A stretch of 64,000 nucleotides of DNA, taken from positions 31,329,788 through 31,393,787 of the forward strand of contig NC_049982.1 of assembly GCF_000003815.2 (NCBI RefSeq). The letters are read 5' to 3'. Shown here piece after piece: positions 29,601 through 63,224 of the stretch (position 1 is its first letter; each line of letters opens with the position of its first letter). This DNA comes from Branchiostoma floridae. Its lineage: Eukaryota; Chordata; Leptocardii; Amphioxiformes; Branchiostomatidae. The position numbers and the translations under genes were made by a program. The notes below the pieces were generated by a model. That model was not told the origin of the DNA. It saw only the letters and a list, made by a program, of their open reading frames with translations, and ran no database searches.

Positions 29601-29604
29601 CAAA

Positions 29605-29850
29605 CAGCAGAGTGACTAAAAGTAAAGTCAGGATCTGTTGTCACATTTAACATATTTACTTGCCTAAATACAAAGTCATGGGAACGGCTGAGTAGCTTAA
29701 ACTACACTCAGGATCTGTTGCCACATATAACATATTTACTTGTCTAAATACATAGCCATGGGAACGGCAGAGTGACTAAAAGTAAACTCAGGATCTGTTG
29801 TCACATTTAACATATCTACTTGCCTAAATACATAGTCATGGGAACGGCTG
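29605..29850. repeat. 80 bp tandem triplication containing the channel gene stop codon
   Basis: ATGGGAACGGC recurs at 29679, 29759 and 29839, exactly 80 bases apart, with the preceding AGGATCTGTTG, CACAT, TAACATAT and CTAAATACA strings also repeated. The highest-coordinate copy contains the last ten codons and the stop of the channel gene; the other two are in its 3' UTR. Confidence 0.9.
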
Positions 29851-30248
29851 CCGCGATGCTGATGATGTACAGAACAAGTAAAACCCTGTCCAGGACTTTA
29901 GCCAACAGGATGTACTCGGACACCTCCTCTTCATTCATCATAACCTTCTTAAGCACCTCTCTCTTGTTATCAACAGCCTTTGCGAGCTCTTTGACTTCTT
30001 TTTTTACGCCTTTAAGATTAGGGATAAGCTGAAGGAGGGCGGTGGTGCGGGTGGGCACCAGACTTGAGAGAGGCGTTGATGGCTGTTTGGTTGTCTCATT
30101 GCCATCACAGGGCCTTTCGTCGTTGACGTCCACCTTGCCATCGCATAGAAAAGCGCAGTTGATCAGGCCTGTGGCTGGAAAGTCTGTCAGGTCAGCCTCT
30201 TCATCACGGGGGTGCTTCTTTTCTGTTAGATCGCCCAACAGCAGTATT
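29816..30248 (-). CDS. Channel gene last exon: M3-M4 loop, MA helix, M4 and stop
   Basis: It begins [20 protein letters not shown] after TTTTTATTTAG at phase 2. It continues with an acidic/polar loop, a charged helix ([18 protein letters not shown]) and M4 ([20 protein letters not shown]). The stop TAG lies in an 80 bp tandem repeat. Loop length, about 100 residues, is normal for nicotinic-type subunits. Confidence 0.92.
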
Positions 30249-33200
30249 CTAAATAAAAATGACGTGAATTAAATGGCGCCGAAGAGCAATTACTGTAAAT
30301 GTAGAAACTTTCGCGGTGGTTTGATGTTCGCGGTTTTCGCGGTGGCCGCTTCACCGCGAACATTTTTTATGGCAGTAAGAGACTACAGTGCATGGTGCTA
30401 CCGCGAACTTAAAACCAACGCGATAAGTATATTTCCCGCTACCACAAAATTAAATCTCCGCAAAGTTAAATGCATTTAAGTATTACTTGAGCTTTCTACA
30501 ACCCGAAATTCATGACGATTGTTCAAAGTTATTCTCTTTCAAACATTGAAACGAAATCGCCCCCCCCCCCATCACCAGGGAACCATACCTACACAACTTA
30601 AGAATCATGGCCATAAAATCTCCAGAACATGAGATCAAAAACGTCAAGTACATAAGAAAGTTGCTAGGAGACCAATATTTGGATAATTGGGAAATATTAT
30701 ATACTGAGTGAAAAGGTGGCCCTTGTGTGTAAGGAAAACAATTCCAACAAACAGAAAAACTAGCATGTAATGTTGGTGATATTCTCATTAGAGAATGCCA
30801 TTAACTAAATATGGAGCCTTGTCGAATCATGGAATATTAAAAATTTGGGATAAGCGAATGTATTTTGAGGTTACAAAGATACCGCGGAAATAATTCTAAA
30901 ATGCTGTAATTACTAGTTACTATCAATTTTCTTCCAACAGTGACTAGATGATCTACGAAAGCCTGGCCTAGTCTCGTGTTCTCTCGCGAGATCGAGACTA
31001 GGCCATTCTCCGTGACCAAGATGTGCTGTCAGACATCGAAAATTTGGAGGTACGTACTCTACATTTAAAACAGTCACTGTCGGAAGAAAATTGATAGTAT
31101 CTGTATACATACGTAACTGATGAACCTCTTCAACGATATTCAACTGTAATGACTAGTAATTACTTTGAAATGTGTCGGAGAAAAATAATCTTCGCCATTG
31201 GAGACAGGCTGCCCTTCCGGTCGTGAATAATGATGACGGCCATGGTAAGAAGGAGGAAAACTCCCATCAGCCCCATGCACACGATGATCAGCGTAGCTGT
31301 AAAATTATGATAAAACATAGCACGGACGTTCATCGATTTGTGTTAAATAAATGGACAAGCTGAACTTTGCCCAAGCAACACTTGGGGCTTATCCAAATTT
31401 TCGGCTAACACCATGTCTACTGCAGCTTCCGGAACATGACATTCGAGCTGGCCGTCCAACACTGAACAGAGACGGGGGGTGACATAGGTTATCTGAAACC
31501 AAATGATTGGCTGCTGCAGCCATGTGGCTTCGACGGTACGTCCCGGAAGCTGCAGTAGACGGGTCCATTCCGTGAACAAGGCTGACGGAGTCATCCGAAA
31601 ATTTAGCTAAGTTAACTTTCTTCAGTGATAGTTAGGGACATTTTAGTTTGTCATAATGGCAAACAGTTACCAGAATGCTAAATATCAGGATAGCCTTAAC
31701 TGACATTTATCTTGTTCAAAAAACAATGCAGTCGATTTGTATCTATTTTACTCACCGAAAAATGGCAAACCCCCCTTGACAGGAAGAACGCCTGTGACAA
31801 ATACAAGAGACACGACCATGGAGAGCAGAATGGTCAGGCCAAACGAGATCCGGTCTCCCCTGTCCAGGGGCATGACGAAGGTGATGATCATCAGCACAAC
31901 CAGGATGATGCAGGGTCCCACAGTAGTGGCGAGGTGAAACAGGGGGATCCTCTTTAGATGAACAACAAAGCATGCTTCTCTGTTGTCTTTCGCAAATATA
32001 TTGTCATTTCTATGCCATTCGCCCTCTGTTGTTACATCCGAGTAAGAGTTGCATGGACTGCTCCCCTTGTCTGTTGATCCTCCTCCTTGGCATTCTACAT
32101 GTTCAAAACATAAAAAATATCACGTCATTCCGTCAACGAGCTATTGTCATCCAAAGTTTGAAAGACAATCGGCCACTGCACTTCCAAAAACGCCCAAACT
32201 TACCGAACGTATTTCCTACTCAAAAAGCTATCTGTTCGTCAAAAATCATGACCTTAGCATGTCCAGAACACGAGATATCAATAACTAACGCTCCACTGCA
32301 GTACCTTAGAAAGCCTCTGTGGTGCCCATTATCGAACCTGACCTTAGTTTTCCTGACACCTACCCACCTACCAAATATCATCAGGATCCATCAAAGGCAC
32401 ACGTACAGACAAACACGCCCAAAATATAACCTTCTTGACGACGGTAAAGACCATTACTTGTACGCGTAAACCATTACTTGTTATCTTGTCATCAGGATAT
32501 AATATGTAATACCCCTTTGATACATCCGAATTGCGATCGATGGCCCGTACAGTTGATCATGAAGACTCATCTTACATACATACAAACCTACATAGTCATA
32601 CCCTTAACAAGTTAGCCATATCCAGACCGGGCTTTTTTGGGATTCCTGGGACGGGGGGGGGGGGCTCTTTTGACCCCCTCCTTCGTAATTTCAAAACGGC
32701 TTGGGTTACGATCACCAAATTTGGAGGGAATGGTGTAAAGATTTATATGTTCTGTAAGTTTGGTATCGTTATGACGTAATATGACGTAATTATGACGTCA
32801 TAATGTCATAATTTTAGCCCCCCCCCCCGTCTGGATAGGATTAAAGCATTCACAAAGTTTTGCTTCCATTCCAAGAATCATCTTCTGATTACAAAGTCTG
32901 GTCCCCTCCTGTTGTCAGTGTTGGATGGTATTCTTCTCTTGCCAACATATGAACAGCTTGTAGTTGTGATTTATTTTGTTTTAGAAATATTCCCTATCAT
33001 TTTACCCAATCTTTTACAAAAGGAACGAAAATCAGTTAAGACTTATTTTTTCGAAATCCTTACGAATGGTTTGAATAGGTAAGAATTATTTATACCACCT
33101 TTCCACTAGGACGACGCTCTCGTCGCGCTCTCTCTGCGAAATAAAAATTGACAGATCTGTTGTCTTTTCAGTTACACTTTTACGTTTTGTATGATATGCC

Positions 33201-36200
33201 AAGTGTGAAAGCGAACGTTACACATATCCTATTTAGTTCGCAATGAGAGCGCAGCGCGATGGCCGTCTAGTGGAAAGGGGGCCCGGAACTTACGAATGGT
33301 TTGCTCCACTGCTGCGATCGCAGAGAAGCAGACGTGACATTCCATGGTGTCTGCAGGGAAGTAGAAGGGGTCTGCATCACACACAGTGGTGGTCTGGGTT
33401 TCTACACTCCAGGCTACCCGGCCATTGCTGCTCACGCGGACCGGGACATCCTTTTGTAGGCTGTGTGAAGCAGCACTGCGAAGGTTCAACATGTTTTGGT
33501 TATTTGTTCTTGTTTTTCCTTTCCCTTTGAAACGGTGTCTAGTTGTTGCTACACAATATCGTGTGTAAGGCTCGTATATTACTAGGATGCAAAAAATTAT
33601 AATGTATGCCCATTGATTATTTCAGTAGCCAATATGAGATTTTGTTGATTTTTTTCAGTTATGAAAGCTCAAATCGGCCTGCACTGCAGGTGGCCTTTTA
33701 TTTAAGTCATGAGGGAAGAGATGTCAGATAAAATACATAACAGAGGTATACGTAACGTATAGTTTATAAAACTAACCTTTGTTTATAAAAAATAAACTTT
33801 GTTCCAACACAACAGAAGACAGACTCACCATGAATTTTCGGTCCAGCACGTCGACCTTCTTCAGATAGACGATTCGCTGCACTGATGTTCCGGAAGTTCG
33901 TCGGATGACGTCAGCACTCAGCGGCGAATGGTCAATGGCGGGAAAGCGAAACTACCGCCATAACACGGTTCAGAGAGGGTTGATGCGCCATTATGTATAT
34001 GACCTCCTTGACAAACCCCATAAAATGCCTTCCCGCCATTTACGATTCGCTGCTGAGATGAATGCTGACGTCATTCAACATCAGTACGGCGAATCGTCTA
34101 TCTAATAGGGCCTTTACACTGAATCCGAATTAGCAGGAATCAAGCAGAACCAGCCGGAAGGAAGTATTTGCAAAATTCTTGCCACATTCGGGGCAATTCC
34201 GAATGGGGATTCCAAATGGACCTCATATCCCCTTCACACGAGTTCGAAGGAATGAGCCCCAATGCCGTCATAATAAAAAGTATTCTCTTTTCCTGGGTAT
34301 TCGTAGCGTATTCTAGAAATTCTTACTGCATTCCAGATATTCTTTTGGCCACTTTAGAAGTGGCTTGCCGTTTCGGTTCTCCATCAAATGAGATAAGAAT
34401 GTTTTGAGTAATGTTGGAATGCCGTAGAATGCGGTCATAATGCAGTTAGAATAGTTAGAAGACACTTTGAATCCACTTCGAATGCACCTCGACAGTTTTT
34501 AACTTGTCAAAAACTTTCGGACCAGCCAAAAATTCTGGCACAAATAGCTGGAATTGCCAGGAATAGAAAAGAATTTTCATTCCGACGGCATTCCGGCTGA
34601 TTCTTGCTCTTGTGTGAAGGGTGCTTAAAGAACATCGACGTGCTCGACTGAAAATTTATGGTTAGTCTTTCTTCTGTTGTGCTGGAACAAAGTTGAACCT
34701 TTTTCGCTATGGATTCTACCATGAGATTCTACAATCACAGATGAGATTTCATTCAGATGTGAGGTAAAGTTTACTTCATTTATAGTCATACTAAGTCTAT
34801 ACACATATTTTGCACATGCATGGTACACAATACATAGAAGCGAGCTGCTGTATGATTCGAGTCCGTTTGTTTTGGTAGTTTCTGTTTCTTTAAGCTGCTA
34901 CATCATAAATATTGAATTCCTAAGTTTCCCTAGTAAGGCTTTCACCCGGTCCTTCAATGTAATCTGATGGTCAAATGAAAGTTTATTTCAAAGTGTCATA
35001 CCAAAAGGCGGATTGAAGGTACATGGGAGAAACATAGGGAACATACATGTGACAATGGATAGTGATAAATGTAATTGTAAAAAGAGACAACTAGAATATA
35101 CTAGTGTTGGCTATTTCTTACCAGGTTGGGTTTGACTCCTTTTTGTAAGTAGAGAAAGACGAAAAGCCCTATTTTTTCTACAATTTGTGGATTCTGTGAC
35201 TTTAAGAGGAAAGTGGCTTTCTGTTCATCTGTGAATGTAGTTAAAAGTTGGAGTATGTCACTGTGACTTCTCTTAACAAACTTGGTCAAACCGCACCTAG
35301 ATATGTATATTGGACATGTGATGCATGAAATGATTAATCTAAAAGGCGGAAACTGAATACACAGGGGTGCCTAAGCATTTGCATGAAACGCAAGAAAATT
35401 ATGAAAATCACACGAATCACTATGAGTTAACGAACGAACCTTGTGCGATTTGTACGAACCTTATGCAAATGACGTAATGTCACGTGATTCGGTGGTGGTC
35501 GGCCGGTTTCGCATACGGTTCGTGCAAATCGCATAAGGTTCGTACGTTTTCGCATAGTGATTCGTGCGTATCACATAATGTTCGTGCGAATCTCATAGGG
35601 TTCGTGCAAATGCTTAGGCACCTCTGATACAAGCTTACTTTCTCTTCAAGGTCAATATTGGAGTCCAAATGTTGTCACCAGGAATGTTGAGTGTCGTGAC
35701 GTCATCGTAGTATTTTGGATCCCAGCTCAGTCTGCTGTCTTGCCATGTCTAAGAAAAGGAACAATCATTTACTATCAATTTTTTTCCGACAGTGACTGTT
35801 TTAAAGGTAGAGTACGTATCTCCAATTTTTGGATGTCTGACTGCACATCTTGGTCACGGAGAATGGCCTAGTCTCGATCTCGCGAAAGAGCACGAGACTA
35901 GGCCTGGCTTGCTTAGATCATCTGCCCCTCCCCCCGCCTCCTTGCGGAGAAGGGGTAGGTTTAGTCTCGTGTTCTCTCGCGAGATCGAGACTAGACCCTC
36001 TCCGTGACCAAGATGTGCTGTCAGACATCGAAAATTCGGAGGTACGTACTCTACATTTAAACCAGTCAATGTCGGAAAAAAATTGATAGTAACTGTATGC
36101 ATACGTGACAGGTGAACATCTTCAAGGAACAAACATGAAAATAATTACCAAAATAACGTCTGAAACACCTCTGGGCAAAACGTTCTTTATGTGCAGTCAT

Positions 36201-57200: not shown

Positions 57201-60200
57201 AGCATTCTGCAAACAACGTCTGCGTCCCTCATGTCAAACTGGTCCTGACACACCGTGCCCCATGTGAAACTGTTGTCCGGCCGGACCTCCACACGCCCTT
57301 CGTTTTCACTGGAACCTCCGACAAGACGTACTCTGCTAGGATCTGAACATTTATCTTAGGTATCAACGCTAGTTCACCTTTATCCGTAGGGTAACCTATA
57401 TCCGTTGTAGGTAAAAATAGGGTATGTGGGGATCGTTAAGTCGATGGAAGGAAATTTCACATTGAAATATACTTAAAATGTTGACATTTCGTTGACCTGA
57501 AATCCCTGACTCTTGTCGTTGACCTGAAATCCCTAAATACCCATTGTTTTTAAAACAGCGAATCTAGGTTACCGCATGGATTAAGGTGAGTTAGCGTGAA
57601 CGCTAGTCCACCTTTTTCCGGGTTTCTTCTAGGGTAACCTATATCCAAAACAGGATATTTAGGGATAGCAAATCGACGGAAGGTGCAACATTTTGCATGT
57701 AAACTGCAATATTCACAAAATATTGAAAGTTGACGCCACCGTCCGATGACATGATGTCCCTAAATACACTAAAAACAAAAACAAGTGCTTTTAAAAAAGC
57801 TGGCATTTTGCCAATGTTTGCGTGTGTGAACGTTTTTTTGTCTTTCGCCGCGCTTCCGCGGCGAAAGGCAATCAGACCGATATTAGATTTCTGTCCGTCT
57901 GTCCGTCCGTCCGTCCGTCCGGGTCGACCATGCCATACCGTGCTAGCGAGATATTCTACCCTGTAGATTCGACGGTATGTAACGTTATGACATACGTATC
58001 GGCCTACCATGAATGTGCTGCTTGGTTTGCGGTCCATGCCATATCGTGCTAGCGAGATATTCTACCCTGCAGATTCGACGGTATGTAACGTTATGACATA
58101 CGTATCGGCCTACCATGAATGTGCTGCTTGGTTTCTGTATGGCTTATAAGCAGGAATTTGCAGAGACGGATGTGAACGGTGAGGATTTCTTCGTAAGATT
58201 GTATACAATTTATAAACTAACATGTTCGCTGTTTGGTTATAATAAAACAGACATTGTAGAGAACAGTTTGACATGTCATTTACTTTGTTTTATGGAAAAT
58301 CACCGCTACAAAATCTAGAATTGTGTAAGATGCGTGCGCCGCATCTGACATGGTGTGGGAGGGGGGCGTATTCGGAAATTTCTTACTCTAAGAAATTTCA
58401 GGCTATTTTCGTGTAACAAACTTCTTTCAGCAAAATAGTAGCCCTCGGATGCGTTGAAAATAGAATTACCCACATTTAATTTATAATTTCGAAAGGGAAG
58501 ATTCTGACCGAGCTCGACGGAGTGAGTCTGACGCGTGACGTCACGACTCCGTCAAGTAAAAGCATAATTGCGTTACTAAAAGAAACGAAACGTTCCATTA
58601 AACATACCACGGACCTGTTTTAGTTTAAAATATCTACCTTTCACATGATCTTGCCATTAAAAAAAATATTTCCATTACTGTATATGCCATGTTAATATTT
58701 TATGTTCAGTTGTTTATGGTGACAATACTTTGTTTGTTCTTGCAGAAATTCAGGACACATCTACTGATAAATTTGATTACTACAGTGCACTTTCATAAAA
58801 CCCTGTTGTACTGTAACAGAGCCGTTCTTAACAGCGAAACAATCCGAATAAAGTTAACATCATTCATGCAGTTGTGTTATTATACAGTTCAAGTAAAATA
58901 TACTCTGTGAGAACCACTACCTTACTAAACAGTTATATAACCTAGCACTTGACCAAACTGTGCCAGAGCTGCCAACGTTGCAGACTTGGCACCCACGCTT
59001 GACCAAACTATGCCAAACAATTTTACCTACACAATATAAGTAAGCGAAAGACTAGCTTTTTTCAGAAGCTCTTGTTTTTCTAGTTATTAGAATGTCATAT
59101 AAATAGAACAGAGTAACTAAACCTGATATTGGCGCATGGAGAGATTCACATATGTGCCTGAACTGCAGCAGATCTAGACGCCACCTGTTAAAATTTGCGT
59201 GAATTGCAGCAAATTTCACTACACATTGCCTGTTTTTGAGTGAGCTCTGTTGCGGGGCATTTTTAAGTTGTTTTTTTTTTAATTTTTATTTCTATTCGGC
59301 AAAAAAACGAAGCGGCGAATCCGTTAACCAAAGAAATAAATTGGTGTGGCCAAATGGATGTAAAAATTAGTATCTTAATGGATGTAAAAAAGAAAACAAA
59401 GTTGAAAAAAATCTACCTCCCCGGATTCGAACCGGGTGCATTGGTTTAGAATGCGTAAACTTTACCACTGCGCTAGTGCGAACATGTTGAAGTGCCTGTT
59501 TTAACAGGTATACAAATGTTTGGCATGGATTGAACAGGTCCGTTCATCTCAACATCACAACGGCGACTACACTGGCCAGAAGGCATTTTGCGACTGCATC
59601 ACTGCAAGTCGCAAAATGCAAAAATGGATATACGTTAACACGCGATGAAAGGTGAACTAGCGTTATATGTATAATGGGAGTTGGTAGTAGGAAGAAGGAG
59701 TTGCATACCCAAGAGAGACATAATATTTTAAGTGCTACGGCAGCTGAAGCTTGTAAAAACAAGCAAAGGTAGAAAAAAGTGTCAATTTTCTTGTTGCGGT
59801 AGACAGTTTTCATTCTAGTTTGCTGTACTTGTCTTGAATTTTTCTGCCAGTTCATTCTAGTGACGCTGAAGAAGAGTGATGGATGTCATTCGAAACGTCC
59901 GATAGTAAATATCCGTTTTTTCATCCAGTTGTAGAGATCGAATTGAATTTTAATATTATTTACCTGACTGTCTAACCTTCATGAACGTAACAAAATACTT
60001 CCTCAACATACCGCATGCAACGCCGACATCATGAATATGACGACAGTTGTAGATCCCCCAACCTGCGTACGAGCAGTTGAACAGGCTACTCTCGTTCCCA
60101 GCACATTGTAAGTCATCCATGAAGATCGGCCCGTTTCCTTGATTTTCTTTCACGACAGATCACAACAGTATTAATCATTACTGACTGAAGGTGACCAGCC

Positions 60201-63200
60201 ATTACAATAACTAAGGGCATTACATAGCCTTAAAAGATTTAATGGTTCTTGGTGGGAGACCAATGTGCAGATGTTGGCACATTGGCGCACCAAATCCGTA
60301 GCGTGTTTTATGGCATACAATTAGACAGATTAGCCGAAGAGGCTCGGTGGGCGTCACTCCACCGTAAGGGAAACTCGCGTAAAGTGCCTTTCCCAAGGGC
60401 ACAGCGTCGGGGCATGCTGGGTATCGAATTAAGAACTTTTCGATTTAGAACCGAACCCTCTACCAGTCACGTCACACTAACGACACCTTGCGAGAATATG
60501 CCAAAACGCCTTGAGGCACACGTGTTTCAGTTTAGTGTATACATTCCTTCATCAAATAAACGAAGGATTATTATGAAAAATACTTGACATGATTGTGCTG
60601 ATCATTTTGTTTTCATTATGCCATTATCGGTTACATCAATAATTATATCAATAGTTTATCGCATCACTGTAAATACAGAAACTTTCGCGGTGGTTTAATG
60701 TTTGCGGTATTCACGGTGGCCGCTTCACCGCGAATTTAAAACCACCATGGCAATATGAGACTACAGTGCATCGTTCTACCGCGAATTTATAACCACCGCG
60801 AAAAGTCCTTTTTCCCGCTATCGCGAAATTAAATCCCCGCAAACTTAAATGCATTTACAGTATCACATCATCGGCCAAAGCGCCAAGTTGTGTACCTGTT
60901 TCACTTTTTTAGCGAAATTGTTTTTCGAAAGATAAATGTTTACGAGTACCTATTATTGGAAAGGGGGGACTAGAAGTTTTACACATGGGACAACAGCATC
61001 CTCCTATGCAGTGACATCCAACAGCGAAAACGCCTTTCTGGATGTACCCTGCTCTTTCAACCGTCACTCCTAGTTCCTGTGGACGTCCTTTCTAAACCAA
61101 CTGTCAGCCAATCAGAGAATAGGCCTTTCATTTTTCAAAAGGGGGCTCGCATATATAATGGTAAGCTCATTAATATTTATAAGCAGGGCGGTCAGGAACT
61201 AATAAGGTTGACGGTTAAGAAAGCAGGGTACATCCAGACAGGCTTTCTTCGCTGTTGGATGTCCCTGCGTAGGAGGATGGGCAACAGAAGATAAAATTTA
61301 ACCTTCGGCAAGTTCATTAAATCCGCTGGCTCTGAGATAGCCCAACATTCTGCAAACAACGTCAGCGTCCCTCATGTCGAAATGGGTGTCGCAAACTGTG
61401 CCCCAGGTGAAACTGTCTTCCGGCCGGACCTCCACACGCCCTTCGTTCGGACCGGAACCTCCGACCAGACGGATTCTACCCACGGCTGTTAAGAATACAG
61501 TGGAAAATGAAACACATCTTATTTGTGAATGTGCCCAAGTCGATGCCGAAAGAAAAAGACTATTTGAAAAAGTGGCCAAACATCACACCAATATTTTCAT
61601 TGTTAAAAACGTCACAAAAGATTCTCGTCCTACTAAGATCATTGAATCAATCTATCATAGAATACATGAGGCATTTCATTTTCAACTGTCTTCATCGACC
61701 ATAATTATTCATTTCATGTATCTAGTCTTTCTTTACTTGCAATCAGCCCCATGGGCATGAATTTGCAATAAACATTATCATTCTGGTTAAGTAATGGACA
61801 TGAGCTTCATATGTATACTTTGAAATGTGACTCTTTTTATTTCTAATGTTTCTTCTATTTCTCCTGTCAATTCTTCGGATCGATTCGTTTCTGTTCTATT
61901 GGATCAATTGTGCAATATATCCCAGGGATAATGGGCCAATGTACCCACACATTTTTTTCTTTCTTTTTTTTAGGATTTTATTAAGAATTTGTTGGCCTTT
62001 TTTAGACCAAAACGCATATTCTCCCACTCTCCCACCCCCGCACCCTAGTATTAGAACTACACATGACCCAAAACATGGTATAGGGCTGCATTAGACATTT
62101 ATTCCAAGGAACCATGCATTAATTTTTTGCGGCTTTAACCACTTCAAAATTATTTATTGGTTATAGCAGATCACCAGGTGTTATGACACCATATACACTT
62201 TGGGGCAGGTCATCAACACTTAATTAGCCTCTATTGTACTTCGCTTCAGGAACCAAAATATTCTAACAATAACGTCAATGATTTGTGTATTACGTTTATG
62301 AAGGTTACACACCAAGGAAAACAATACTTCAAACCAGTTCATTTCAATCTGTACAACTGGATAACCTTCCGAGATCGCTTTCGCACGCTTTGAGTGACAT
62401 CCATCACTCTTCTAGACTTGATTAGTTCTGCCAGACCTGTGGAAGACTGATGTATGTCAATCAAAACGTCTGGAAGTGATCTCCAAATCGTATCCGATTG
62501 TAGAGACTGATCTGTTACAATATAGAGTCAAGGGTTCCAGGGTGCTTCTACAGATTATTTTTCAGTGGTGCCTAAGCATTTGCACGAACCCCATGTGATT
62601 CGTAAGAATATTTTGAGATACGCACGAATCACTATGAGAAAACGCACGAACCTTATGAAAATATATAATCACATGAATCACTATGCGAAATCGTACAAAC
62701 CTTATGAAAATCACACGAATCACTATGCGAAATGTACGAACCTTATGCAATTTGCACGAACCTTATGCGAATGACGCAATGTCACGTGACCCGGCGGTGG
62801 TCGGCCGGTTTCGCATAATGTTCGTGCAAATCGCATAAGGTTCGTGTGCGTCACATAGTGATTCGTGCGAATCACATAAGGTTCGTACGTTTTCGCATAG
62901 TGATTCGAGGGATTTTCATAAGGTTCGTGCGTTTTCACATAGTGATTCGTGCGTATCACATAATGTTCGTACGGATCTCATAGGGTTCGTGGAAATGTCT
63001 AGGCACCCCTGTTATAGGAGTTTCAAGATCATGGTTACTTTTACAAATCGGTGTAGCATCGCTCCATGTCCCATTTGTCCTACAGGTGATGTTGGCAGTC
63101 CCCCACAGCTGGTACCCTGTGATACAGGTGTACCTGACTGTCTGTCCTGATGTAAAGTTACTGTTGTTATCCCTGTTCCCGTTGAAAGGCACGCCAGGAT

Positions 63201-63224
63201 CCCAGCAATGGCCTTCAGCATTGC
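29816..63224 (-). CDS. Mosaic Cys-loop ligand-gated ion channel with giant multidomain ectodomain (28 exons, 5' partial)
   Basis: On the minus strand 28 exons with GT-AG borders (one GC-AG) join without a frame break: 5,099 bases, 1,698 residues and a stop at 29816-29818. Order: sushi; SRCR x4, each split over two exons; YWTD six-blade propeller over five exons; EGF; C-type lectin; LDLR class A; Frizzled-like CRD in two exons; kringle; sushi; Cys-loop ligand-binding domain in four exons running into a fifth with M1-M2; M3; M3-M4 loop and M4. Every ectodomain module boundary is phase 1, and the second sushi ends at phase 1 exactly where the channel's first exon needs it. The channel part is nicotinic-like and would form a cation pore as a pentamer in the plasma membrane; the added modules are typical of adhesion, scavenger and lectin proteins. 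Two adjacent genes or trans-splicing are possible alternatives, but no start codon with signal peptide was found between sushi and channel. I know no described protein with this order. Confidence 0.82.
30285..30482. repeat. MITE-like element, family C
   Basis: TACTGTAAATGTAGAAAC to AAATGCATTTAAGTA with TTCGCGGTGG/CACCGCGAA blocks inside. It lies 37 bases upstream of the last channel exon's acceptor. Confidence 0.8.
30918..31100. repeat. MITE-like element, family D (CTCGCGAGATCGAGACTAGG)
   Basis: ACTATCAATTTTCTTCCAAC at the left is mirrored by GGAAGAAAATTGATAGT at the right. The centre has TAGTCTCGTGTTCTCTCGCG with its inverse. A second, longer copy lies at 35771-36092. Confidence 0.8.
31164..31296 (-). 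CDS. Channel gene exon: M3
   Basis: It reads [38 protein letters not shown], matching M3 and the start of the cytoplasmic loop. It follows ATTTTACAG and ends CAAA/GTAATT; phase 1 in, 2 out. Confidence 0.87.
31370..31610. repeat. Inverted-repeat element
   Basis: CTACTGCAGCTTCCGGAAC near 31420 is mirrored by CCCGGAAGCTGCAGTAG near 31545, and CCAAATTTTCGGCTAA by CCGAAAATTTAGCTAA at the outer ends. Confidence 0.65.
31756..32094 (-). CDS. Channel gene exon: end of ligand-binding domain, M1 and M2
   Basis: It reads [45 protein letters not shown] and [19 protein letters not shown]2 aligns with GEKISLGITVLLSL of alpha-7 nicotinic receptors, with Asp at -1', Arg at 0' and Leu at 9', and without the insertion seen in anion channels. 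No vicinal CC of loop C is found. Phase 1-1, ending TTCG/GTGAGT. Confidence 0.9.
32130..32440 (+). repeat. Tail fragment of the octamer repeat family
   Basis: AGAACACGAGATATCAATAA, CTCCACTGCAGTACC and AATATAACCTTCTTGACGACGGTAA are the tail signatures of the family. The octamer part is missing. Confidence 0.55.
32616..32844. mobile_element. Short piggyBac-like copy
   Basis: CATATCCAGACCGGGC at the left and GTCTGGATAGGATTAA at the right correspond to the ends of the 13501 element. TGACGTAAT/TGACGTCAT strings and a C run before the right end also match. The left TTAA is degenerate. Confidence 0.6.
33098..33278. repeat. MITE-like element 14 bp from a splice donor
   Basis: CCTTTCCACTAGGACGACGC with GCGCTCTC is mirrored by GAGAGCGCAGCGCGATGGCC with GTCTAGTGGAAAGG. 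It sits immediately downstream of the Cys-loop exon's donor (GT at 33293-33292). Confidence 0.8.
33294..33460 (-). CDS. Channel gene exon: Cys-loop
   Basis: It reads [13 protein letters not shown], then [15 protein letters not shown], a Cys-loop with exactly 13 residues between cysteines and the FPxD signature. The loop B tryptophan expected just after it is not present ([11 protein letters not shown]). Phase 2 in, 1 out (CATTC/GTAAGT). Confidence 0.88.
33855..34103. repeat. MITE-like element (AGATAGACGATTCGC ends)
   Basis: AGATAGACGATTCGCTGCAC at the left, GCGAATCGTCTATCT at the right, with GATGACGTCAGCA and TGCTGACGTCATTCA as inner mirror images. Confidence 0.8.
34107..34623. repeat. Probable inverted-repeat element
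   Basis: GGGCCTTTACACTGAATCC and CAGCCGGAA at the left are loosely mirrored by TTCCGGCTGATTCTTGCTCT and TGTGTGAAGGGTGC at the right. GAATTCC/GGAAT motifs abound inside. Confidence 0.5.
35101..35290 (-). pseudogene. LINE C-terminal tail fragment
   Basis: The minus frame reads [20 protein letters not shown] then [16 protein letters not shown], the helical end found after the Cys-rich motif of LINE reverse transcriptases. No upstream RT domain is attached. Confidence 0.4.
35364..35624. repeat. Palindromic element, family P (GGTGCCTAAGCATTTGCA)
   Basis: GGGGTGCCTAAGCATTTGCA at the left is mirrored by TGCAAATGCTTAGGCACC at the right. The interior is built from CGAACCTTATGC and CGAATCACTATG units and their inverses. 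A longer copy lies at 62566-63009. Confidence 0.85.
35639..35748 (-). CDS. Channel gene exon: ligand-binding domain, loop A/E region
   Basis: It reads [36 protein letters not shown]; phase 0 in, 2 out (GAAA/GTAAGC), 110 bases, the same length as the matching exon of nicotinic receptor genes. The PDxxLYN loop A motif has become TPILTLKRN, losing its tyrosine. Confidence 0.88.
35771..36092. repeat. MITE-like element, family D, second copy
   Basis: ACTATCAATTTTTTTCCGAC to GTCGGAAAAAAATTGATAGT. The central TAGTCTCG/CGAGACTAG block is duplicated compared with the 30918 copy. It lies 23 bases upstream of the acceptor of the loop A exon. Confidence 0.8.
36364..36703. repeat. GC-rich inverted-repeat element
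   Basis: GGCCTAGGTCCTAATCGCAA at the left and TGCAGTTGGGACCTAAGCC at the right are inverted. Partial relatives lie at 9690-9770 and 43985-44265. Confidence 0.65.
36712..37086. repeat. AT-rich dispersed repeat, inverted copy at 47640-47990
   Basis: The two copies share GATAGATGGGCATG, AAGAATTCTAA, GCCATAT and CTGCAATGAAA/TTTCGTTGCAG in opposite orientation. A palindrome (TTAGTAGATATCAATTTGCG) ends 7 bases from the donor of the 45 bp exon. Confidence 0.65.
37094..37138 (-). CDS. Channel gene exon: 45 bp ligand-binding exon (DEK motif)
   Basis: It reads [15 protein letters not shown]; phase 0-0, after CATTTCAG and before TTTC/GTGAGT. Vertebrate nicotinic subunit genes have a 45 bp exon at exactly this place, encoding the VDEKNQ region. 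Confidence 0.88.
37200..37620 (+). pseudogene. LINE reverse transcriptase C-terminal fragment
   Basis: Frames with one shift read [18 protein letters not shown], then EIEGERFF and [10 protein letters not shown], the Cys-rich end of a LINE protein. It is antisense to the channel gene and truncated. Confidence 0.6.
37685..37797 (-). CDS. Channel gene exon: Cys-loop ligand-binding domain, N-terminal helix and strand 1
   Basis: It reads [35 protein letters not shown], aligning with the RLL..LL..Y start of nicotinic subunits. It enters at phase 1 after ACTGATGCAG. The donor that keeps frame is TTG/GCAAGT, a GC-AG intron; the GT three bases further would shift the frame. Confidence 0.82.
38199..38387 (-). 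CDS. Channel gene exon: sushi/CCP 2, adjoining the channel
   Basis: It reads [45 protein letters not shown]; phase 1-1, ending GCTCAG/GTGATT. It is the last recognition module before the ion-channel exons, 400 bases away on the same strand. Confidence 0.88.
38455..38690 (+). repeat. Tail fragment of the octamer repeat family
   Basis: It contains AACACGAGATAGCAAACCCG, TTGCGCTGCAGTGCC, GAAGCCGCTAGGGGGCCC and AACCTCCATGACATTTCATG, nearly the same as 12440-12680. Confidence 0.75.
38728..38940. repeat. MITE-like element, family C
   Basis: AAAATGTATTTACGTTCGCG to TTTCTCCATTTACAGTA with GCACTGTAGTCTCTTAC in the middle, the same core as the other three copies in inverse orientation. Confidence 0.8.
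38973..39194 (-). CDS. Channel gene exon: kringle domain
   Basis: It reads [39 protein letters not shown] and EDCDVIPC: all six kringle cysteines. It follows GTGTCCCATAG and ends TTGTG/GTAAGT; phase 1-1. The pairing Fz plus kringle is also seen in ROR kinases. Confidence 0.9.
39245..39660. other. Intron sequence without recognisable features
   Basis: This part of the intron between the Frizzled and kringle exons shows no repeat ends, no module-like frame and no RNA-gene motifs. Confidence 0.4.
39766..39929 (-). CDS. Channel gene exon: Frizzled-like CRD, second part
   Basis: It reads [37 protein letters not shown]; phase 2 in, 1 out (CGAAG/GTGAAA). The two parts together show eight of the usual ten Fz cysteines; those near the second and fourth positions are absent. 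Confidence 0.84.
39994..40250. repeat. MITE-like element (GTGTCTATCAGACAC ends)
   Basis: AGGTTAAACTTACTT, CTTACTTGCTTACG and TGTCTATCAGACACTT at the left are mirrored by AAGTGTCTGATAGACACAGA, CGTAAGCAAGTAAG and TCTAACCTGG at the right. Confidence 0.8.
40300..40460. repeat. MITE-like element (TATGGTAGCATAAGA), copy 1
   Basis: GGATTCTATGGTAGCATAAG with ATGGTATCAAAGGCTG is mirrored by AGCTTTTGATACTATCTG and CTACCGTAAGATCC. The second copy lies at 54474-54640. Confidence 0.75.
40623..40884 (-). CDS. Channel gene exon: Frizzled-like CRD, first part
   Basis: It reads [44 protein letters not shown]; phase 1 in, 2 out (TGCAT/GTAAGT). The PNxLGQ and FPxC motifs are those of Fz domains. Confidence 0.85.
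41040..41485. repeat. Element with GGTACCGG and GGACCTGGACC ends
   Basis: GGGATGGGTACCGGTACGG at the left; GGACCTGGACC repeats and GGTATCCACCCC at the right. The element at 48251-48586 has the same ends in inverse order; a fragment lies at 22760. Confidence 0.75.
41730..42232 (-). repeat. tRNA-derived SINE, near full length
   Basis: On the minus strand it starts with GATCGCGTGGCGCAGCGGCA (A box) and GGTCTCGAGTTCGACTCC (B box). It continues with CTTTATTCCGCTTTCCTCAC and a long non-tRNA body. Truncated relatives are at 43640, 53550 and 60340. Its head ends about 8 bases from the LDLR-A exon donor. Confidence 0.75.
42242..42358 (-). CDS. Channel gene exon: LDLR class A repeat
   Basis: It reads [19 protein letters not shown], then [18 protein letters not shown]: six cysteines and the calcium-binding acidic cluster. 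It follows TCCATGCACAG and ends TGTG/GTAAGT; phase 1-1. A SINE ends about 8 bases into the following intron. Confidence 0.9.
42464..42684. repeat. MITE-like element, family A
   Basis: GTAACGCAAGTTCACCTTTA to AAAGATGAACTTGCGTCAAG with the CGTGGGGTAACCTATATCCG ends and a CAAGTCGACGG centre. Confidence 0.8.
43030..43449 (-). CDS. Channel gene exon: C-type lectin domain
   Basis: One exon of 420 bases, phase 1-1, holds a complete long-form domain: [64 protein letters not shown] and KFIC. The EPN and WND calcium/sugar motifs are both present, the combination associated with mannose-type binding. It ends AAAAG/GTATTC. Confidence 0.9.
43640..43985 (-). repeat. SINE fragment
   Basis: CACCGCACCATCTCACATGT, GCCTGGGGTATGGCTCTCC and AAGTGTCTTTCCCAAGGGCA match the body of the SINE at 41730-42232; the tRNA head is missing. 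Confidence 0.65.
43985..44265. repeat. Partial relative of the 36364-36703 element
   Basis: GTTCGGGCGTGACCC, GGGACAAATTTGTGTCTTC and GACTACATCCCCTACGGGC resemble parts of that element. It abuts the donor side of the EGF exon, which may explain the unclear exon border there. Confidence 0.5.
44275..44409 (-). CDS. Channel gene exon: EGF-like domain
   Basis: It reads [19 protein letters not shown], then [18 protein letters not shown], the LDLR-type EGF that follows YWTD propellers. The 5' border TTCATATTAG is sound. The 3' border TTG/GTCGGA is chosen only because it gives phase 1; the true donor may differ. Confidence 0.75.
44500..45420 (+). repeat. Octamer-rich AT repeat family, copy 5, with (CATA)n end
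   Basis: The order is close to that of copy 1 (GACCCCATACCTTCGCCAAATGATCCT at 44502 also occurs at 6258). TATGCAAAT pairs follow, then CTCGAGATATCAAATCAG, GTCGCTAGGGGCCCC and a (CATA)n microsatellite at 45338-45410. Confidence 0.8.
45632..45838. repeat. MITE-like element, family A
   Basis: AACGTTAGTTCACCCTTATC to GATAAAGATAAACTAACGTT with inner CATGTCGACGG and CCGTCAACTTGATA. Confidence 0.75.
45880..45992 (-). CDS. Channel gene exon: last YWTD blade
   Basis: It follows TACAACATCTCCAG at phase 2 and ends TCATG/GTAAAA at phase 1. It reads [18 protein letters not shown], then NPADIYVST, closing the six-bladed propeller before the EGF. Confidence 0.75.
46012..46499. repeat. MITE-like element, family A, split by a piggyBac-like insertion
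   Basis: The left part GTTCACCTTTATCCGCGGGG ends at 46055. The right part resumes at 46398 with GAAACAGGGTGTTTAGGG and runs into the N gap. The interruption is the element at 46052-46397. Confidence 0.75.
46052..46397. mobile_element. piggyBac-like element nested in a family A MITE
   Basis: TTAACCCTATCAAGAC at the left and GTCCAAATAGGGTTAA at the right, with GGGGGCTAAAAGTGTCTGCG, CTTGGTGACTTTCCTAAAAT and TGACGTCAT shared with the 13501 element. The host sequence is continuous if one TTAA is removed. Confidence 0.78.
46500..46741. other. Assembly gap (242 N)
   Basis: A run of N inside a channel gene intron. ORFs crossing it are meaningless. Confidence 1.
46900..46949. repeat. Perfect 22 bp hairpin next to the gap
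   Basis: AACTAGCCGAATTCGGCACA and two more As form the left arm, exactly mirrored at 46928-46949 around a 6-base loop. GAATTCGGCAC resembles a common cDNA linker, but a natural palindrome is equally possible. Confidence 0.8.
47031..47196 (-). CDS. Channel gene exon: YWTD propeller blade
   Basis: It follows TCACCTCTTTCAG and ends AGAAG/GTAAGA; phase 1 in, 2 out. It reads [20 protein letters not shown], then [14 protein letters not shown]. Confidence 0.88.
47640..47990. repeat. AT-rich dispersed repeat, inverted copy of 36712-37086
   Basis: It shares GTTAACAGATATCAATTGGCGC, CATTTCATGCCCATCTATCAATATT-like and TTAGGGGCAACAAAA strings with that copy, in opposite orientation. Confidence 0.6.
48110..48234 (-). 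CDS. Channel gene exon: YWTD propeller blade
   Basis: It reads [20 protein letters not shown], then GAITIDYK, and ends AAAG/GTGAGA; phase 2 in, 1 out. Confidence 0.88.
48251..48586. repeat. Element with GGTACCGG and GGACCTGGACC ends, second copy
   Basis: GTGGGTACCGGTACAG, GTCCAGGTCCGGTTCAGGTC and TTTCCGGACCGGTCCAATAA match the 41040-41485 element. Confidence 0.75.
48877..49137. repeat. MITE-like element, family B (TCCTACGCAGAGACAT), copy 1
   Basis: TCTCCTACGCAGAGACATTC with GGCGCAAGCAAACCGCC is mirrored by GGCGGTTTGCTTGCGCC and GTGGATGTCTCTGCGTAGGA. Copies 2 and 3 are at 55756 and 61000. Confidence 0.85.
49180..49335 (-). CDS. Channel gene exon: YWTD propeller blade
   Basis: It reads [20 protein letters not shown], then [12 protein letters not shown], and ends AATGG/GTAATT; phase 2-2. 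The G|LMYW junction with the next exon restores a normal DPRNGLMYW blade edge. Confidence 0.87.
49345..49660. repeat. Inverted GAACAAAGTCTTCTTCGTTTC repeat
   Basis: ATCGAACAAAGTCTTCTTCG at about 49409 is mirrored by CGAAGAAGACTTTGTTCGA at about 49617, flanking about 190 bases. Confidence 0.7.
49876..50171. repeat. MITE-like element, family A
   Basis: GTAACGCTAGTTCAGC to GGTGAACAAGCGTTACAC. It is longer than the others by an AT-rich insert near 50000-50110. Confidence 0.7.
50208..50427 (-). CDS. Channel gene exon: YWTD propeller, first blades
   Basis: It reads [20 protein letters not shown], then [20 protein letters not shown]. It enters at phase 1 and must leave at phase 2. The donor TGTGG/GTGCCT fits the frame but is weak; GTGGGT three bases earlier would break it. 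Confidence 0.8.
50540..51560 (+). repeat. Octamer-rich AT repeat family, copy 6, with ~150 bp tandem tail
   Basis: TATGCAAAT/TTTGCATAATTAATG pairs at 50660-50990. The tail unit (TACAAAGCC, CACTTAACCTTCCTTTTC, ATCAACAGC, GAGTTATCTTG) is repeated about three times from 51065. Confidence 0.7.
51708..51845 (-). CDS. Channel gene exon: SRCR 4, second half
   Basis: It reads [20 protein letters not shown], then [14 protein letters not shown], and ends ACAG/GTAGGT; phase 1-1. Six cysteines per SRCR and the two-exon layout are the group A pattern. Confidence 0.86.
52180..52410 (-). pseudogene. LINE C-terminal fragment
   Basis: GGCGAAAGCTCGGTAATATTG, AGTTACAAGTAC and TTTCACAATATTTGCACAG parallel 16110-16290 (AAAAGCTCGGTAAAATTG, AGCAATATTTACATA), identifying the same LINE tail on the minus strand. 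Confidence 0.45.
52841..53032 (-). CDS. Channel gene exon: SRCR 4, first half
   Basis: It reads [37 protein letters not shown] and FFGQ, and ends CCAAG/GTAAGA; phase 1-1. Confidence 0.88.
53040..53550. other. Intron sequence without recognisable features
   Basis: No repeat ends, no module-like frame and no RNA-gene motifs were found in this stretch upstream of the SRCR 4 first-half exon. Confidence 0.4.
53550..53745 (-). repeat. SINE fragment
   Basis: GCTCGAGGCACCTCCTCGAA, CATTTAACATCCCTCC and CTCTTAGCCACAGGGCAATG look like a decayed tRNA-type SINE. A relative (GAGGCGCCTCCTCGAGCAC, TTTTACGTCCCTCCCGGAAG) lies at 57015-57085. Confidence 0.5.
54165..54290 (-). CDS. Channel gene exon: SRCR 3, second half
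   Basis: It follows TTCTTTTTAG and ends TGCG/GTACAG; phase 1-1. It reads [20 protein letters not shown], then [12 protein letters not shown]. Confidence 0.87.
54474..54640. repeat. MITE-like element (TATGGTAGCATAAGA), copy 2
   Basis: AGATCCTATGGTAGCATAAG with ATAGTATCAAAAGCTG is mirrored by TTTGGTACTGTCTTG and CCATTGTAGGATCCGC. Confidence 0.75.
54746..54940 (-). CDS. Channel gene exon: SRCR 3, first half
   Basis: It reads [37 protein letters not shown] and [12 protein letters not shown], and ends TAATG/GTAGGA; phase 1-1. It is the most diverged of the four first halves. Confidence 0.87.
55024..55112. repeat. (TTATG)n pentanucleotide microsatellite
   Basis: About eighteen units of TTATG with one interruption. 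It is followed by an inverted pair CACTGTTTTTCATCAGTAA and TTACTGATGAAAAACAGTG (55122-55190). Confidence 0.95.
55505..55636 (-). CDS. Channel gene exon: SRCR 2, second half
   Basis: It reads [20 protein letters not shown], then [13 protein letters not shown], and ends TTACAA/GTATGT; phase 1-1. [12 protein letters not shown] is shared with SRCR 1, suggesting recent duplication. Confidence 0.87.
55756..56015. repeat. MITE-like element, family B, copy 2
   Basis: TTCTCCTACGCAGGGACATC with AACGGCGAAACCGCC is mirrored by GGCGGTTTCGCTGTTGGAT and GTCCCGGCGTAGGAGGA. Confidence 0.85.
56140..56990 (+). repeat. Tandem repeat, unit about 151 bp, five copies
   Basis: ACCAGTAGGAAAACGCCAGG recurs near 56172, 56323, 56473, 56624 and (decayed) 56773. 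Each unit contains CAACATCTCGAGTTATGTTG and TTCACAGCCAAACTCACTTA. It is related to the tail of the 50540 repeat. Confidence 0.85.
57151..57342 (-). CDS. Channel gene exon: SRCR 2, first half
   Basis: It reads [37 protein letters not shown] and ends FGQ at CCAAG/GTAAGA; phase 1-1, 192 bases like the SRCR 4 exon. Confidence 0.88.
57367..57595. repeat. MITE-like element, family A
   Basis: AACGCTAGTTCACCTTTATC to ATTAAGGTGAGTTAGCGTG. It includes a local duplication of CGTTGACCTGAAATCCCT (57490, 57518). Confidence 0.75.
57841..58136. repeat. Hairpin, (TCCG)n run and 106 bp tandem duplication
   Basis: CTTTCGCCGC and GCGGCGAAAG (57841-57868) form a perfect stem. (GTCC)n follows at 57894-57920. Then CCATGCCATACCGTGCTAGC and the following 85 bases repeat from 58034. 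Confidence 0.9.
58140..59400. other. AT-rich sequence inside the 1.85 kb insertion
   Basis: No module or transposase frame was recognised. ACTTGACCAAACTGTGCCA and GCTTGACCAAACTATGCCA (58947, 58998) form a short direct repeat. Confidence 0.4.
59405..59490 (-). tRNA. tRNA-like sequence, probably not functional
   Basis: The minus strand has TAGCGCAGTGG (A box), an anticodon-like stem GCATT/AATGC with a seven-base CTAAACC loop, and a perfect T arm CCCGGTTCGAATCCGGG. The acceptor strand GAGGTAG has no partner at the 5' side (GTTCGCA). So it is a tRNA pseudogene or SINE head. Confidence 0.45.
59583..59620. repeat. 13 bp perfect hairpin near the insertion end
   Basis: GCATTTTGCGACT, an 11-base loop and AGTCGCAAAATGC, just inside the right border of the 1.85 kb insertion. 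Confidence 0.75.
59860..59990. repeat. Half of the GATGGATGTCA/CAGTTGTAGAGA element
   Basis: GAAGAAGAGTGATGGATGTC, CGAAACGTCCGATAGTAAAT and CATCCAGTTGTAGAGATCGA match the right end of the element at 20540-20850. It lies 20 bases from the SRCR 1b donor. Confidence 0.7.
60012..60137 (-). CDS. Channel gene exon: SRCR 1, second half
   Basis: It reads [20 protein letters not shown], then [13 protein letters not shown], and ends TGCG/GTATGT; phase 1-1. The acceptor AAAATCAAG has a poor pyrimidine tract, but length and phase equal the other second-half exons. Confidence 0.83.
60340..60490 (-). repeat. SINE fragment
   Basis: AAAGTGCCTTTCCCAAGGGC is shared with the SINEs at 42130 and 43950; a decayed tRNA-like portion (GGTATCGAATTAAGAAC, CTCTACCAGTCACG) follows. 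Confidence 0.6.
60668..60862. repeat. MITE-like element, family C
   Basis: CACTGTAAATACAGAAACTT to AAATGCATTTACAGTA with TTCGCGGTGG and CACCGCGAATTTA blocks. Confidence 0.8.
61000..61281. repeat. MITE-like element, family B, copy 3
   Basis: TCCTCCTATGCAGTGACATC with CAACAGCGAAAACGCC is mirrored by CTTCGCTGTTGGATGTCCC and TGCGTAGGAGGATGG. It ends 22 bases from the SRCR 1a exon's donor side. Confidence 0.85.
61303..61485 (-). CDS. Channel gene exon: SRCR 1, first half
   Basis: It follows TATTCTTAACAG; phase 1-1. It reads [26 protein letters not shown] and [11 protein letters not shown]. The donor GAAG/GTTAAA is weaker than those of the sister SRCR exons. A LINE fragment abuts its 5' side at 61497. 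Confidence 0.85.
61497..61785 (+). pseudogene. LINE C-terminal fragment and 3' tail
   Basis: It reads [20 protein letters not shown] then [14 protein letters not shown], the Cys-rich end of a LINE protein. The 3' tail has AATCAGCCCCATGGGCATGA and TTGCAATAAACATTATCAT. The fragment begins 12 bases from the SRCR 1a acceptor on the other strand. Confidence 0.65.
61790..62284. other. Intron sequence without recognisable features
   Basis: T-rich tracts at 61950-61975 and nothing else of note. Confidence 0.4.
62285..62515. repeat. Decayed relative of the 20540-20850 element
   Basis: TATGAAGGTTACACACCAAG, TCTGTACAACTGGATAA and GAGTGACATCCATCACTCTT at the left and AAACGTC, CGATTGTAGAGACTGA at the right mirror each other with many changes. 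Confidence 0.65.
62566..63009. repeat. Palindromic element, family P, second copy
   Basis: GTGGTGCCTAAGCATTTGCA to GGAAATGTCTAGGCACC. The interior is made of more than a dozen CGAA(CC/TC)xxTATGCG units in both directions, meeting at CACGTGAC. It ends 30 bases from the sushi 1 exon donor. Confidence 0.85.
63039..63224 (-). CDS. Channel gene exon: sushi/CCP 1
   Basis: It follows TATATTTTGCTTCAG and ends AAAA/GTAACC; phase 1-1. It reads [13 protein letters not shown] ... [13 protein letters not shown] ... [16 protein letters not shown] with four cysteines and the late tryptophan of a CCP module. It is the most 5' exon in the window; a signal peptide must lie further upstream. Confidence 0.88.

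What the first reader, a model, noticed from the sequence alone, without database searches (positions are those of the whole stretch)
29816..63224. A Cys-loop ion channel with a giant mosaic recognition ectodomain
Seen: 28 minus-strand exons join with matching phases into one frame of 1,698 residues. It runs from sushi, SRCR x4, YWTD propeller-EGF, C-type lectin, LDLR-A, Fz, kringle and sushi into a complete nicotinic-type ligand-binding domain and four membrane segments. Known: Cys-loop subunits normally consist of a signal peptide, ligand-binding domain and M1-M4, while these modules belong to scavenger, lectin and adhesion receptors. Inference: recognition of glycans, microbes or matrix could be wired directly to ion flux. 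I know of no described channel with this architecture.
Basis: partly seen in the sequence, partly recalled or inferred. Interest (0 to 1): 0.96.

Follow-up and report, generated by a model that had tools for sequence, protein, structure and literature searches.

The report
Giant mosaic-armed ion channel family
A lancelet-like genome carries dozens of nerve-receptor-type ion channels whose outer end has been extended with a long chain of sugar-binding, scavenger and adhesion modules, which could let recognition of outside material open a channel directly.

Summary
The 28 exons at 63224-29816 are there; six more lie beyond the window (signal peptide, CUB-sushi-CUB), giving 34 exons and 2,022 residues: CUB, sushi, CUB, sushi, 4 SRCR, YWTD-EGF, C-type lectin, LDLR-A, Fz-like, kringle, sushi, nicotinic-type ligand-binding domain, M1-M4. 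Sixty-three loci on 19 contigs have a matching kringle exon upstream of the matching channel exon on the same strand, 62 with a ligand-binding exon between. Nine of nine readable paralogs keep the order LDLR-A to M1-M2. The sushi-channel junction has donor and acceptor in phase in ten of ten copies, with an intron as short as 98 nt. Mean dN/dS is 0.05-0.46 in 18 modules. The pore looks cation-selective; the acetylcholine aromatic box is absent. I think it is an expanded family of cation channels gated or tuned by extracellular recognition; the gating is inference. Caveats: with the donor seen in paralogs this copy has a 1-nt frameshift in the propeller; no transcript was seen; the signal-peptide exon was not confirmed in a paralog. 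Ten literature searches in a partial library found no description.

The parts
63039..63224 (-). sushi 1 exon (phase 1-1); first exon of the gene inside the window, not of the gene
   Evidence: PF00084 7.6e-11; boundaries
60012..61485 (-). SRCR 1, two exons 61485-61303 and 60146-60012 (acceptor of the second uncertain)
   Evidence: ORFs; boundaries; not scanned with Pfam
55505..57342 (-). SRCR 2, two exons 57342-57151 and 55636-55505 (acceptor of the first uncertain)
   Evidence: ORFs; boundaries; not scanned with Pfam
54165..54940 (-). SRCR 3, two exons 54940-54746 and 54290-54165
   Evidence: ORFs; boundaries; not scanned with Pfam
51708..53032 (-). SRCR 4, two exons 53032-52841 and 51845-51708
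   Evidence: PF00530 2.1e-30; boundaries
45880..50391 (-). YWTD propeller, five exons: 50391-50212 (or 50208), 49335-49180, 48234-48110, 47196-47031, 45992-45880; apparent 1-nt frameshift in the second; N run 46500-46741 in an intron
   Evidence: PF00058 5e-9 for a join of four of the exons plus EGF
44302..44409 (-). EGF exon closing the propeller
   Evidence: PF14670 4.3e-10
43030..43449 (-). C-type lectin domain, one exon, with EPN and WND
   Evidence: PF00059 4e-20; PDB relatives include mannose-receptor-type chains and DC-SIGN
42242..42358 (-). LDLR class A exon
   Evidence: PF00057 1.4e-12
39766..40884 (-). Fz-like domain, two exons 40884-40623 and 39938-39766
   Evidence: PF01392 1.3e-5, below cut-off; both exons found in 9 of 9 readable paralogs
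38973..39194 (-). kringle exon
   Evidence: PF00051 1.3e-17
38199..38387 (-). sushi 2 exon with phase-1 donor
   Evidence: PF00084 6.5e-9; a GT donor directly after the last Cys-Ser/Thr codon in 10 of 10 copies
37685..37797 (-). ligand-binding domain exon 2 (113 nt, phase 1-0, GC donor)
37094..37138 (-). ligand-binding domain exon 3 (45 nt, phase 0-0)
35639..35748 (-). ligand-binding domain exon 4 (110 nt, phase 0-2)
33294..33475 (-). Cys-loop exon (C-x13-C, FPAD)
   Evidence: PF02931 6.5e-9 for the exon ORF alone
31756..32094 (-). end of ligand-binding domain, M1 and M2
   Evidence: PF02932 8.5e-7 for the exon ORF alone; M2 of 11 loci
31164..31296 (-). M3 exon
29816..30248 (-). M3-M4 loop, M4 and stop
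   Evidence: part of PF02932 match of the spliced chain

Best explanation
This is one member of a large gene family (63 loci counted) of single-chain Cys-loop channel subunits whose amino-terminal side carries about 1,550 residues of recognition modules. SHOWN from sequence: the architecture, its conservation across loci on 19 contigs, purifying selection on average, modules that begin and end in phase 1 up to the phase-1 start of ligand-binding exon 2, a nicotinic-type pore sequence, and absence of the acetylcholine-binding aromatics. INFERRED origin: phase 1-1 modules shuffled into the first (phase 1) intron of a nicotinic-type gene, between signal peptide and ligand-binding exon 2, then many duplications. 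INFERRED mechanism: five subunits assemble, so one cation pore carries five long multivalent arms. Binding of multivalent glycans, microbes, mucus or matrix by the lectin, SRCR, CUB and LDLR-A modules pulls on or rearranges the proximal kringle-sushi stalk on top of the ligand-binding domain and gates or biases the pore, turning surface recognition into cation entry. My odds: single-chain channel 0.93; cation-conducting 0.75; ectodomain recognition gates or modulates current 0.45.
For: Nine of nine readable paralogs (ten fetched; the tenth is two thirds N) carry LDLR-A, Fz, kringle, sushi 2, ligand-binding exons 2-5 and M1-M2 in one order and strand. 63 of 138 merged channel-exon loci have a matching kringle exon within 30 kb upstream on the same strand, about 0.6 expected by chance under a uniform spread; 62 of 63 have a ligand-binding exon hit in between. 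Junction donor and acceptor in 10 of 10 copies, intron 98-1,598 nt, no signal-peptide exon candidate in it in 10 of 10. Mean dN/dS 0.05-0.46 in 18 of 18 modules, 6-10 copies each. Ectodomain and channel trees share 4 of 7 splits, P 0.00055. M2: D at -1' in 11 of 11 loci, acid at 20' in 10 of 11, G in the window copy. Lectin EPN in 9 of 10 and WND in 8 of 10 copies (and the window).
Against: No transcript, protein or current was seen. The window copy has an apparent 1-nt frameshift if the donor seen in paralogs is used and has lost the 20' acid. Reading through the sushi 2 donor meets a stop within 2-11 residues in ten of ten copies, so a soluble intron-retained form is possible. The signal-peptide rule found a candidate upstream of the window gene but none in 13.9 kb upstream of the C17c copy (partly N) or in 300 nt of the C17a copy, so its silence in the junction intron is weaker evidence than it looks, except for the 98-nt intron. 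Ten loci at 45% identity or more have no kringle in the capped list. Ectodomain and channel trees differ in three splits each way. An ectodomain can serve adhesion or localisation without gating.
Confidence: 0.5

Rival explanations
1. Orphan transmitter- or metabolite-gated channel: the ligand-binding domain binds an unknown small ligand and the mosaic ectodomain only places or tethers the channel (cell-cell or matrix adhesion).
For: The ligand-binding domain is nearly complete against Pfam and under purifying selection (mean dN/dS 0.05-0.28 for its exons 2-5). Sushi, CUB and LDLR-A modules are common adhesion and tethering modules (recalled).
Against: At the aligned positions of W55, Y93 and W149 no copy of ten has an aromatic residue, and the stretch before M1 has one cysteine, no vicinal pair (residue numbers recalled), so the usual site is gone. 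Tens of copies with varied outer modules suggest a repertoire of recognition rather than placement.
Confidence: 0.25
2. Non-conducting receptor: the four-helix pentamer is a membrane anchor and multimeriser for a scavenger or lectin receptor.
For: Scavenger, lectin and other recognition modules dominate the chain; the window copy has lost the 20' acid.
Against: M1-M2 is among the best kept stretches (mean identity 0.86, dN/dS 0.17; only the 15-residue exon 3 is higher at 0.90, kringle 0.85). D at -1' and L at 9' are kept in 11 of 11 loci and the 20' acid in 10 of 11. A mere anchor would not need this.
Confidence: 0.15
3. Two adjacent genes: a mosaic protein ending at sushi 2, and a separate channel gene starting near 37800, duplicated together as a block.
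For: Read-through of the sushi 2 exon reaches a stop after 2-11 residues in ten of ten copies.
Against: Donor and acceptor are present in matching phase in 10 of 10; the gap is only 98 nt in one copy; no signal-peptide exon candidate in the gap in 10 of 10; an in-frame ATG precedes exon 2 in only 2 of 10 and has no signal peptide after it. The stop is not at one conserved place.
Confidence: 0.04
4. The window copy itself is a decaying or misassembled member of a real family.
For: One base fewer in a run of G in propeller exon 2 than in the six other copies aligned; length 0 mod 3 against 1 mod 3 in four of four measured; 20' D/E replaced by G.
Against: A donor 4 nt downstream restores an open frame of 2,022 residues; dN/dS of this copy against C17a is 0.145 (ectodomain) and 0.131 (channel), no sign of relaxation; a run of G is a usual place for an assembly error (recalled).
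Confidence: 0.4

Closest known systems
Nicotinic acetylcholine and 5-HT3 receptor subunits (Cys-loop pLGICs)
   Same: LBD plus M1-M4, Cys loop C-x13-C with FPxD, cationic M2 signature, homology over most of the core (nAChR beta E 7.8e-33; 5-HT3A 3.8e-31 over query 33-441 of 451, into M4), LBD exons of 113, 45 and 110 nt (that nAChR genes have 45- and 110-nt exons there is recalled)
   Different: About 1,550 residues of mosaic ectodomain between signal peptide and LBD; aromatic box and vicinal cysteines absent; large family on many contigs
Prokaryotic multidomain pLGICs (PBP-I, Cache, MCP-N fusions; DeCLIC)
   Same: Extra sensor domains between signal peptide and ligand-binding domain (Tasneem et al. 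2004, PMC549065, passages seen; DeCLIC papers PMC9897478 and PMC12664993 seen as search listing with start of abstract)
   Different: Domains there are prokaryotic small-molecule sensors, one or two per chain; no kringle, SRCR, lectin, CUB, LDLR-A or Fz in the passages seen, where the animal forms are given a stereotypic simple architecture
Scavenger-receptor and C-type-lectin mosaic receptors (SRCR proteins, mannose-receptor/DC-SIGN family)
   Same: SRCR, CUB and sushi modules; CTLD related to mannose-receptor-type and DC-SIGN domains with EPN/WND residues
   Different: This family ends in a four-helix channel core; that the known ones anchor by one helix or are secreted is recalled

Membership tests
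Cys-loop receptors (animal pLGICs) | Neur_chan_LBD beta-sandwich domain | tested here: met
   PF02931 1e-30, 107.2 bits against cut-off 26; by sequence profile, no structure
Cys-loop receptors (animal pLGICs) | Cys loop C-x13-C with FPxD | tested here: met
   [15 protein letters not shown] in the window and the same pattern in the ten paralogs that gave a hit to this exon
Cys-loop receptors (animal pLGICs) | Four membrane helices with pore-lining M2 | tested here: met
   PF02932 2.5e-17 over 2-225/233; M3 and M4 exons in 3 of 3 paralogs whose 3' end was fetched
Cys-loop receptors (animal pLGICs) | Pentameric assembly and ligand-gated current | not testable with these tools
   No structure or physiology here
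Cys-loop receptors (animal pLGICs) | Simple architecture: signal peptide directly before the LBD (usual in animals, not strictly defining) | tested here: not met
   CUB to sushi modules intervene; the signal-peptide exon lies about 36 kb upstream of LBD exon 2
Nicotinic acetylcholine receptor alpha subunits | Aromatic box (W55, Y93, W149, loop C tyrosines) and vicinal cysteines | tested here: not met
   Ten copies: A/V/I at W55, K/Q (or a gap) at Y93, I/S/T at W149; one Cys and no vicinal pair before M1; residue numbers recalled
Cation-selective pLGICs | Acid at -1' and no anion-type Pro-Ala insertion before M2 | tested here: met
   GDR at -2' to 0' in 11 of 11 loci; rule recalled, selectivity not measured
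Ca-dependent C-type lectins (mannose type) | CTLD with EPN and WND | tested here: met
   PF00059 4e-20; EPN 9 of 10, WND 8 of 10 copies (and the window; the C10 copy has EPS and WAD, C17b WKD); motif meaning recalled; sugar binding not tested
Prokaryotic multidomain pLGICs | Prokaryotic sensor domain (PBP, Cache, MCP-N) ahead of the LBD | tested here: not met
   Pfam shows none in the ten pieces scanned; SRCR 1-3 and CUB 2 were not scanned

The most novel reading that the evidence does not exclude
A new class of receptor: an expanded repertoire of pattern-recognition ion channels in which lectin, scavenger, CUB and kringle-sushi arms, five per pore, sense microbial or mucosal glycans and open a nicotinic-type cation pore directly, joining innate recognition to membrane excitation in one molecule.
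Probability: 0.35. Interest if true: 0.96.

Novelty: new variant of a known kind. Interest (0 to 1): 0.87.

Why it matters
Animal Cys-loop channels are described as a ligand-binding domain plus four helices (Tasneem et al. 2004, passages). Dozens of genes in one genome that put a 1,550-residue recognition chain on such a channel, kept by selection, would change that picture, show exon shuffling into a channel gene on a large scale, and give a test bed for whether extracellular recognition or force can gate a pentameric channel. It could also link immune or mucosal sensing to electrical signalling near the base of the chordates.

Tried and rejected
Two-gene reading: rejected after comparing ten copies. 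Chance assembly of exons: rejected by the census. Kringle-less close relatives as a possible simple-channel ancestor: ten loci at 45% identity or more have no kringle in the capped list. Two of them were fetched. The C8 copy does have kringle pieces and a sushi stretch upstream of its ligand-binding hits; the C6 copy gave no clear module in the 8 kb read. An ancestral simple form is neither shown nor excluded. The genome-wide search with the sushi 2 exon never ran. Published description: ten searches. Six found no paper; for the other four I saw listings, and passages of PMC4795631 and PMC549065 (reached through the reference list of the former); nothing seen describes this architecture. The library misses most subscription papers, and no UniProt, InterPro or RefSeq annotation could be consulted. 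Structure prediction was not tried, because a spliced chain is not letter for letter in the window DNA. No other lancelet genome was available (no relatives held).

Full report
SETTING. The window lies at C4:31329788-31393787 of a 513-Mb assembly in 431 contigs.

OBSERVATION. I rebuilt the gene from the minus strand. Twenty-eight exons inside the window join in phase. The ligand-binding part consists of exons of 113, 45 and 110 nt followed by the Cys-loop exon; exons of 45 and 110 nt at these places are what I recall for nicotinic receptor genes. Spliced, the channel part gives PF02931 1e-30 and PF02932 2.5e-17, and the nearest solved sequences are nicotinic beta subunits (best 7.8e-33) and 5-HT3A (3.8e-31, query 33-441). 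Ten ectodomain pieces were scanned: sushi (three), SRCR, YWTD with EGF, C-type lectin, LDLR-A, kringle and CUB are over cut-off; the Fz piece is not (26.2 against 32.1 bits). SRCR 1-3 and CUB 2 were not scanned; they are named by likeness to the scanned ones.

BEYOND THE WINDOW. Comparing 5' flanks of paralogs showed two CUB domains, each of two exons, with a sushi exon between them, 3.6-8.8 kb past the window edge, and 10 kb past it an exon coding MEYRIFSIFLIFLVSA and an acidic stretch, with a GTGAGT donor in phase 1. That exon was found by a simple rule (ATG, hydrophobic core, phase-1 donor) in the first 19 kb of the 29.9 kb searched; the rule gave nothing in 13.9 kb upstream of the C17c copy or in 300 nt of the C17a copy, so it is not confirmed in a paralog, although C17a has similar DNA there (65% over 303 nt). 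Every module begins and ends in phase 1; inside CUB, Fz and the propeller, introns have other phases. The whole chain is 34 exons and 2,022 residues.

A FRAME PROBLEM. With the first propeller exon ending at 50212, where the three paralogs looked at have a donor, the next exon (49335-49180, 156 nt) breaks the frame. In four of four paralogs measured that exon is 154, 163, 157 and 169 nt, 1 mod 3 each, and the window has one base fewer in a run of G than the six other copies aligned. Using a donor 4 nt further on restores the frame. So the window copy has an assembly error in a homopolymer, is a frame-shifted allele, or uses the shifted donor. This does not touch the family.

THE FAMILY. The M1-M2 exon finds 150 matches, which merge to 138 loci; the kringle exon finds 150 matches. 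Sixty-three loci have a kringle on the same strand within 30 kb upstream, 61 of them within 10 kb, on 19 contigs; about 0.6 would be expected by chance under a uniform spread. Of the 63, 62 have a ligand-binding exon hit in between (that list ran to E 10). By identity, 61 of 71 loci at 45% or more and 2 of 67 below have the kringle; the ten exceptions include a subfamily with a split M1-M2 exon, one of which (C8) shows kringle pieces when read. Both searches score only 150 candidates, so counts are lower bounds on matches; on the other side, allelic duplicates on small contigs and damaged copies were not excluded, and the loci cluster (12 on C16, 7 each on C17 and C2). Ten paralog regions of 19.8 kb were read; one is two thirds N, and the other nine all have LDLR-A, Fz, kringle, sushi 2, ligand-binding exons 2-5 and M1-M2 in order. 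Outer modules vary: the C17:6,529,705 copy goes from sushi to lectin within about 360 nt, the C19 copy has three CUB-sushi pairs, the C10 lectin is divergent and broken up. The C19 kringle is interrupted and its kringle and Fz donors were not recovered.

ONE CHAIN. In ten of ten copies sushi 2 ends in a phase-1 GT donor and exon 2 starts with a phase-1 acceptor; the intron is 401, 379, 363, 391, 98, 1,598, 230, 397, 417 and 237 nt. Other boundaries were recovered in most but not all copies: the script gave no acceptor for exon 4 in C17d, a doubtful one for exon 3 in C10 and for sushi 2 in four copies, and doubtful lectin donors in three. No signal-peptide-like exon is found in the junction intron in ten of ten, with the weakness of that rule noted above. 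An in-frame ATG precedes exon 2 in two of ten. Reading through the donor stops after 2-11 residues in ten of ten, so a soluble form by intron retention cannot be excluded. Trees of the proximal ectodomain and of the channel share four of seven splits (20,000 label permutations, P 0.00055) and differ in three each way. Mean dN/dS lies between 0.05 and 0.46 for 18 of 18 modules, highest in the propeller, with 6-10 copies each; hits with stops, N or under 80% coverage and pairs with dS over 2 were left out, which favours intact copies.

FUNCTION. M2 has D at -1' in 11 of 11 loci and D or E at 20' in 10 of 11; the window copy has G. By recalled rules this is a cation pore. At the aligned positions of W55, Y93 and W149 ten of ten copies have no aromatic residue (A/V/I; K/Q or a gap; I/S/T), and the stretch before M1 has one cysteine and no vicinal pair. 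The usual transmitter site is therefore absent. The lectin has EPN in nine of ten copies and WND in eight of ten (and the window), and its PDB relatives are mostly mannose-receptor-type chains, DC-SIGN and langerin. The likeliest reading is a cation channel whose opening is set by what the arms bind. That step is inference.

KNOWN WORK. Tasneem et al. [quoted passage not shown] Jaiteh et al. [quoted passage not shown] Ten searches showed no description of the present architecture.

VERDICT. A new variant of a known kind, with a real chance of being a new class of recognition channel.

Noticed in passing
18584-26522 (+): Apparent mosaic receptor tyrosine kinase gene on the other strand: discoidin-like exon (below cut-off), kringle 20219-20449 (1e-27), and one long ORF 23937-26522 with weak cadherin-, EGF- and Ig-like stretches (all below cut-off) and a tyrosine kinase (3.9e-67). 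That these belong to one gene was not tested.
   Followed up: partly
29603-29850: 80-bp tandem repeat (3.1 copies) that overlaps the last codons of the channel gene, so the C-terminal codons are repeated downstream.
   Followed up: no
37685 and paralogs: Ligand-binding exon 2 uses a GC donor in five of ten copies (GCAAGT) and a GT donor in the other five.
   Followed up: no
46500-46741: Run of N inside a propeller intron.
   Followed up: no
C6:15.63-15.71 Mb, C18:15.52 Mb, C259, C8:5.54 Mb: A related subfamily with M1 and M2 hit as separate pieces; the C8 copy also has kringle pieces and a sushi stretch upstream of the channel.
   Followed up: partly
whole genome: Nicotinic-type exons look numerous: PF02931 gives 156 matches (150 candidates scored), with runs of neighbours on C2, C3 and C13.
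   Followed up: no
479-988: 159-bp tandem array rich in CA repeats, 3.3 copies.
   Followed up: no
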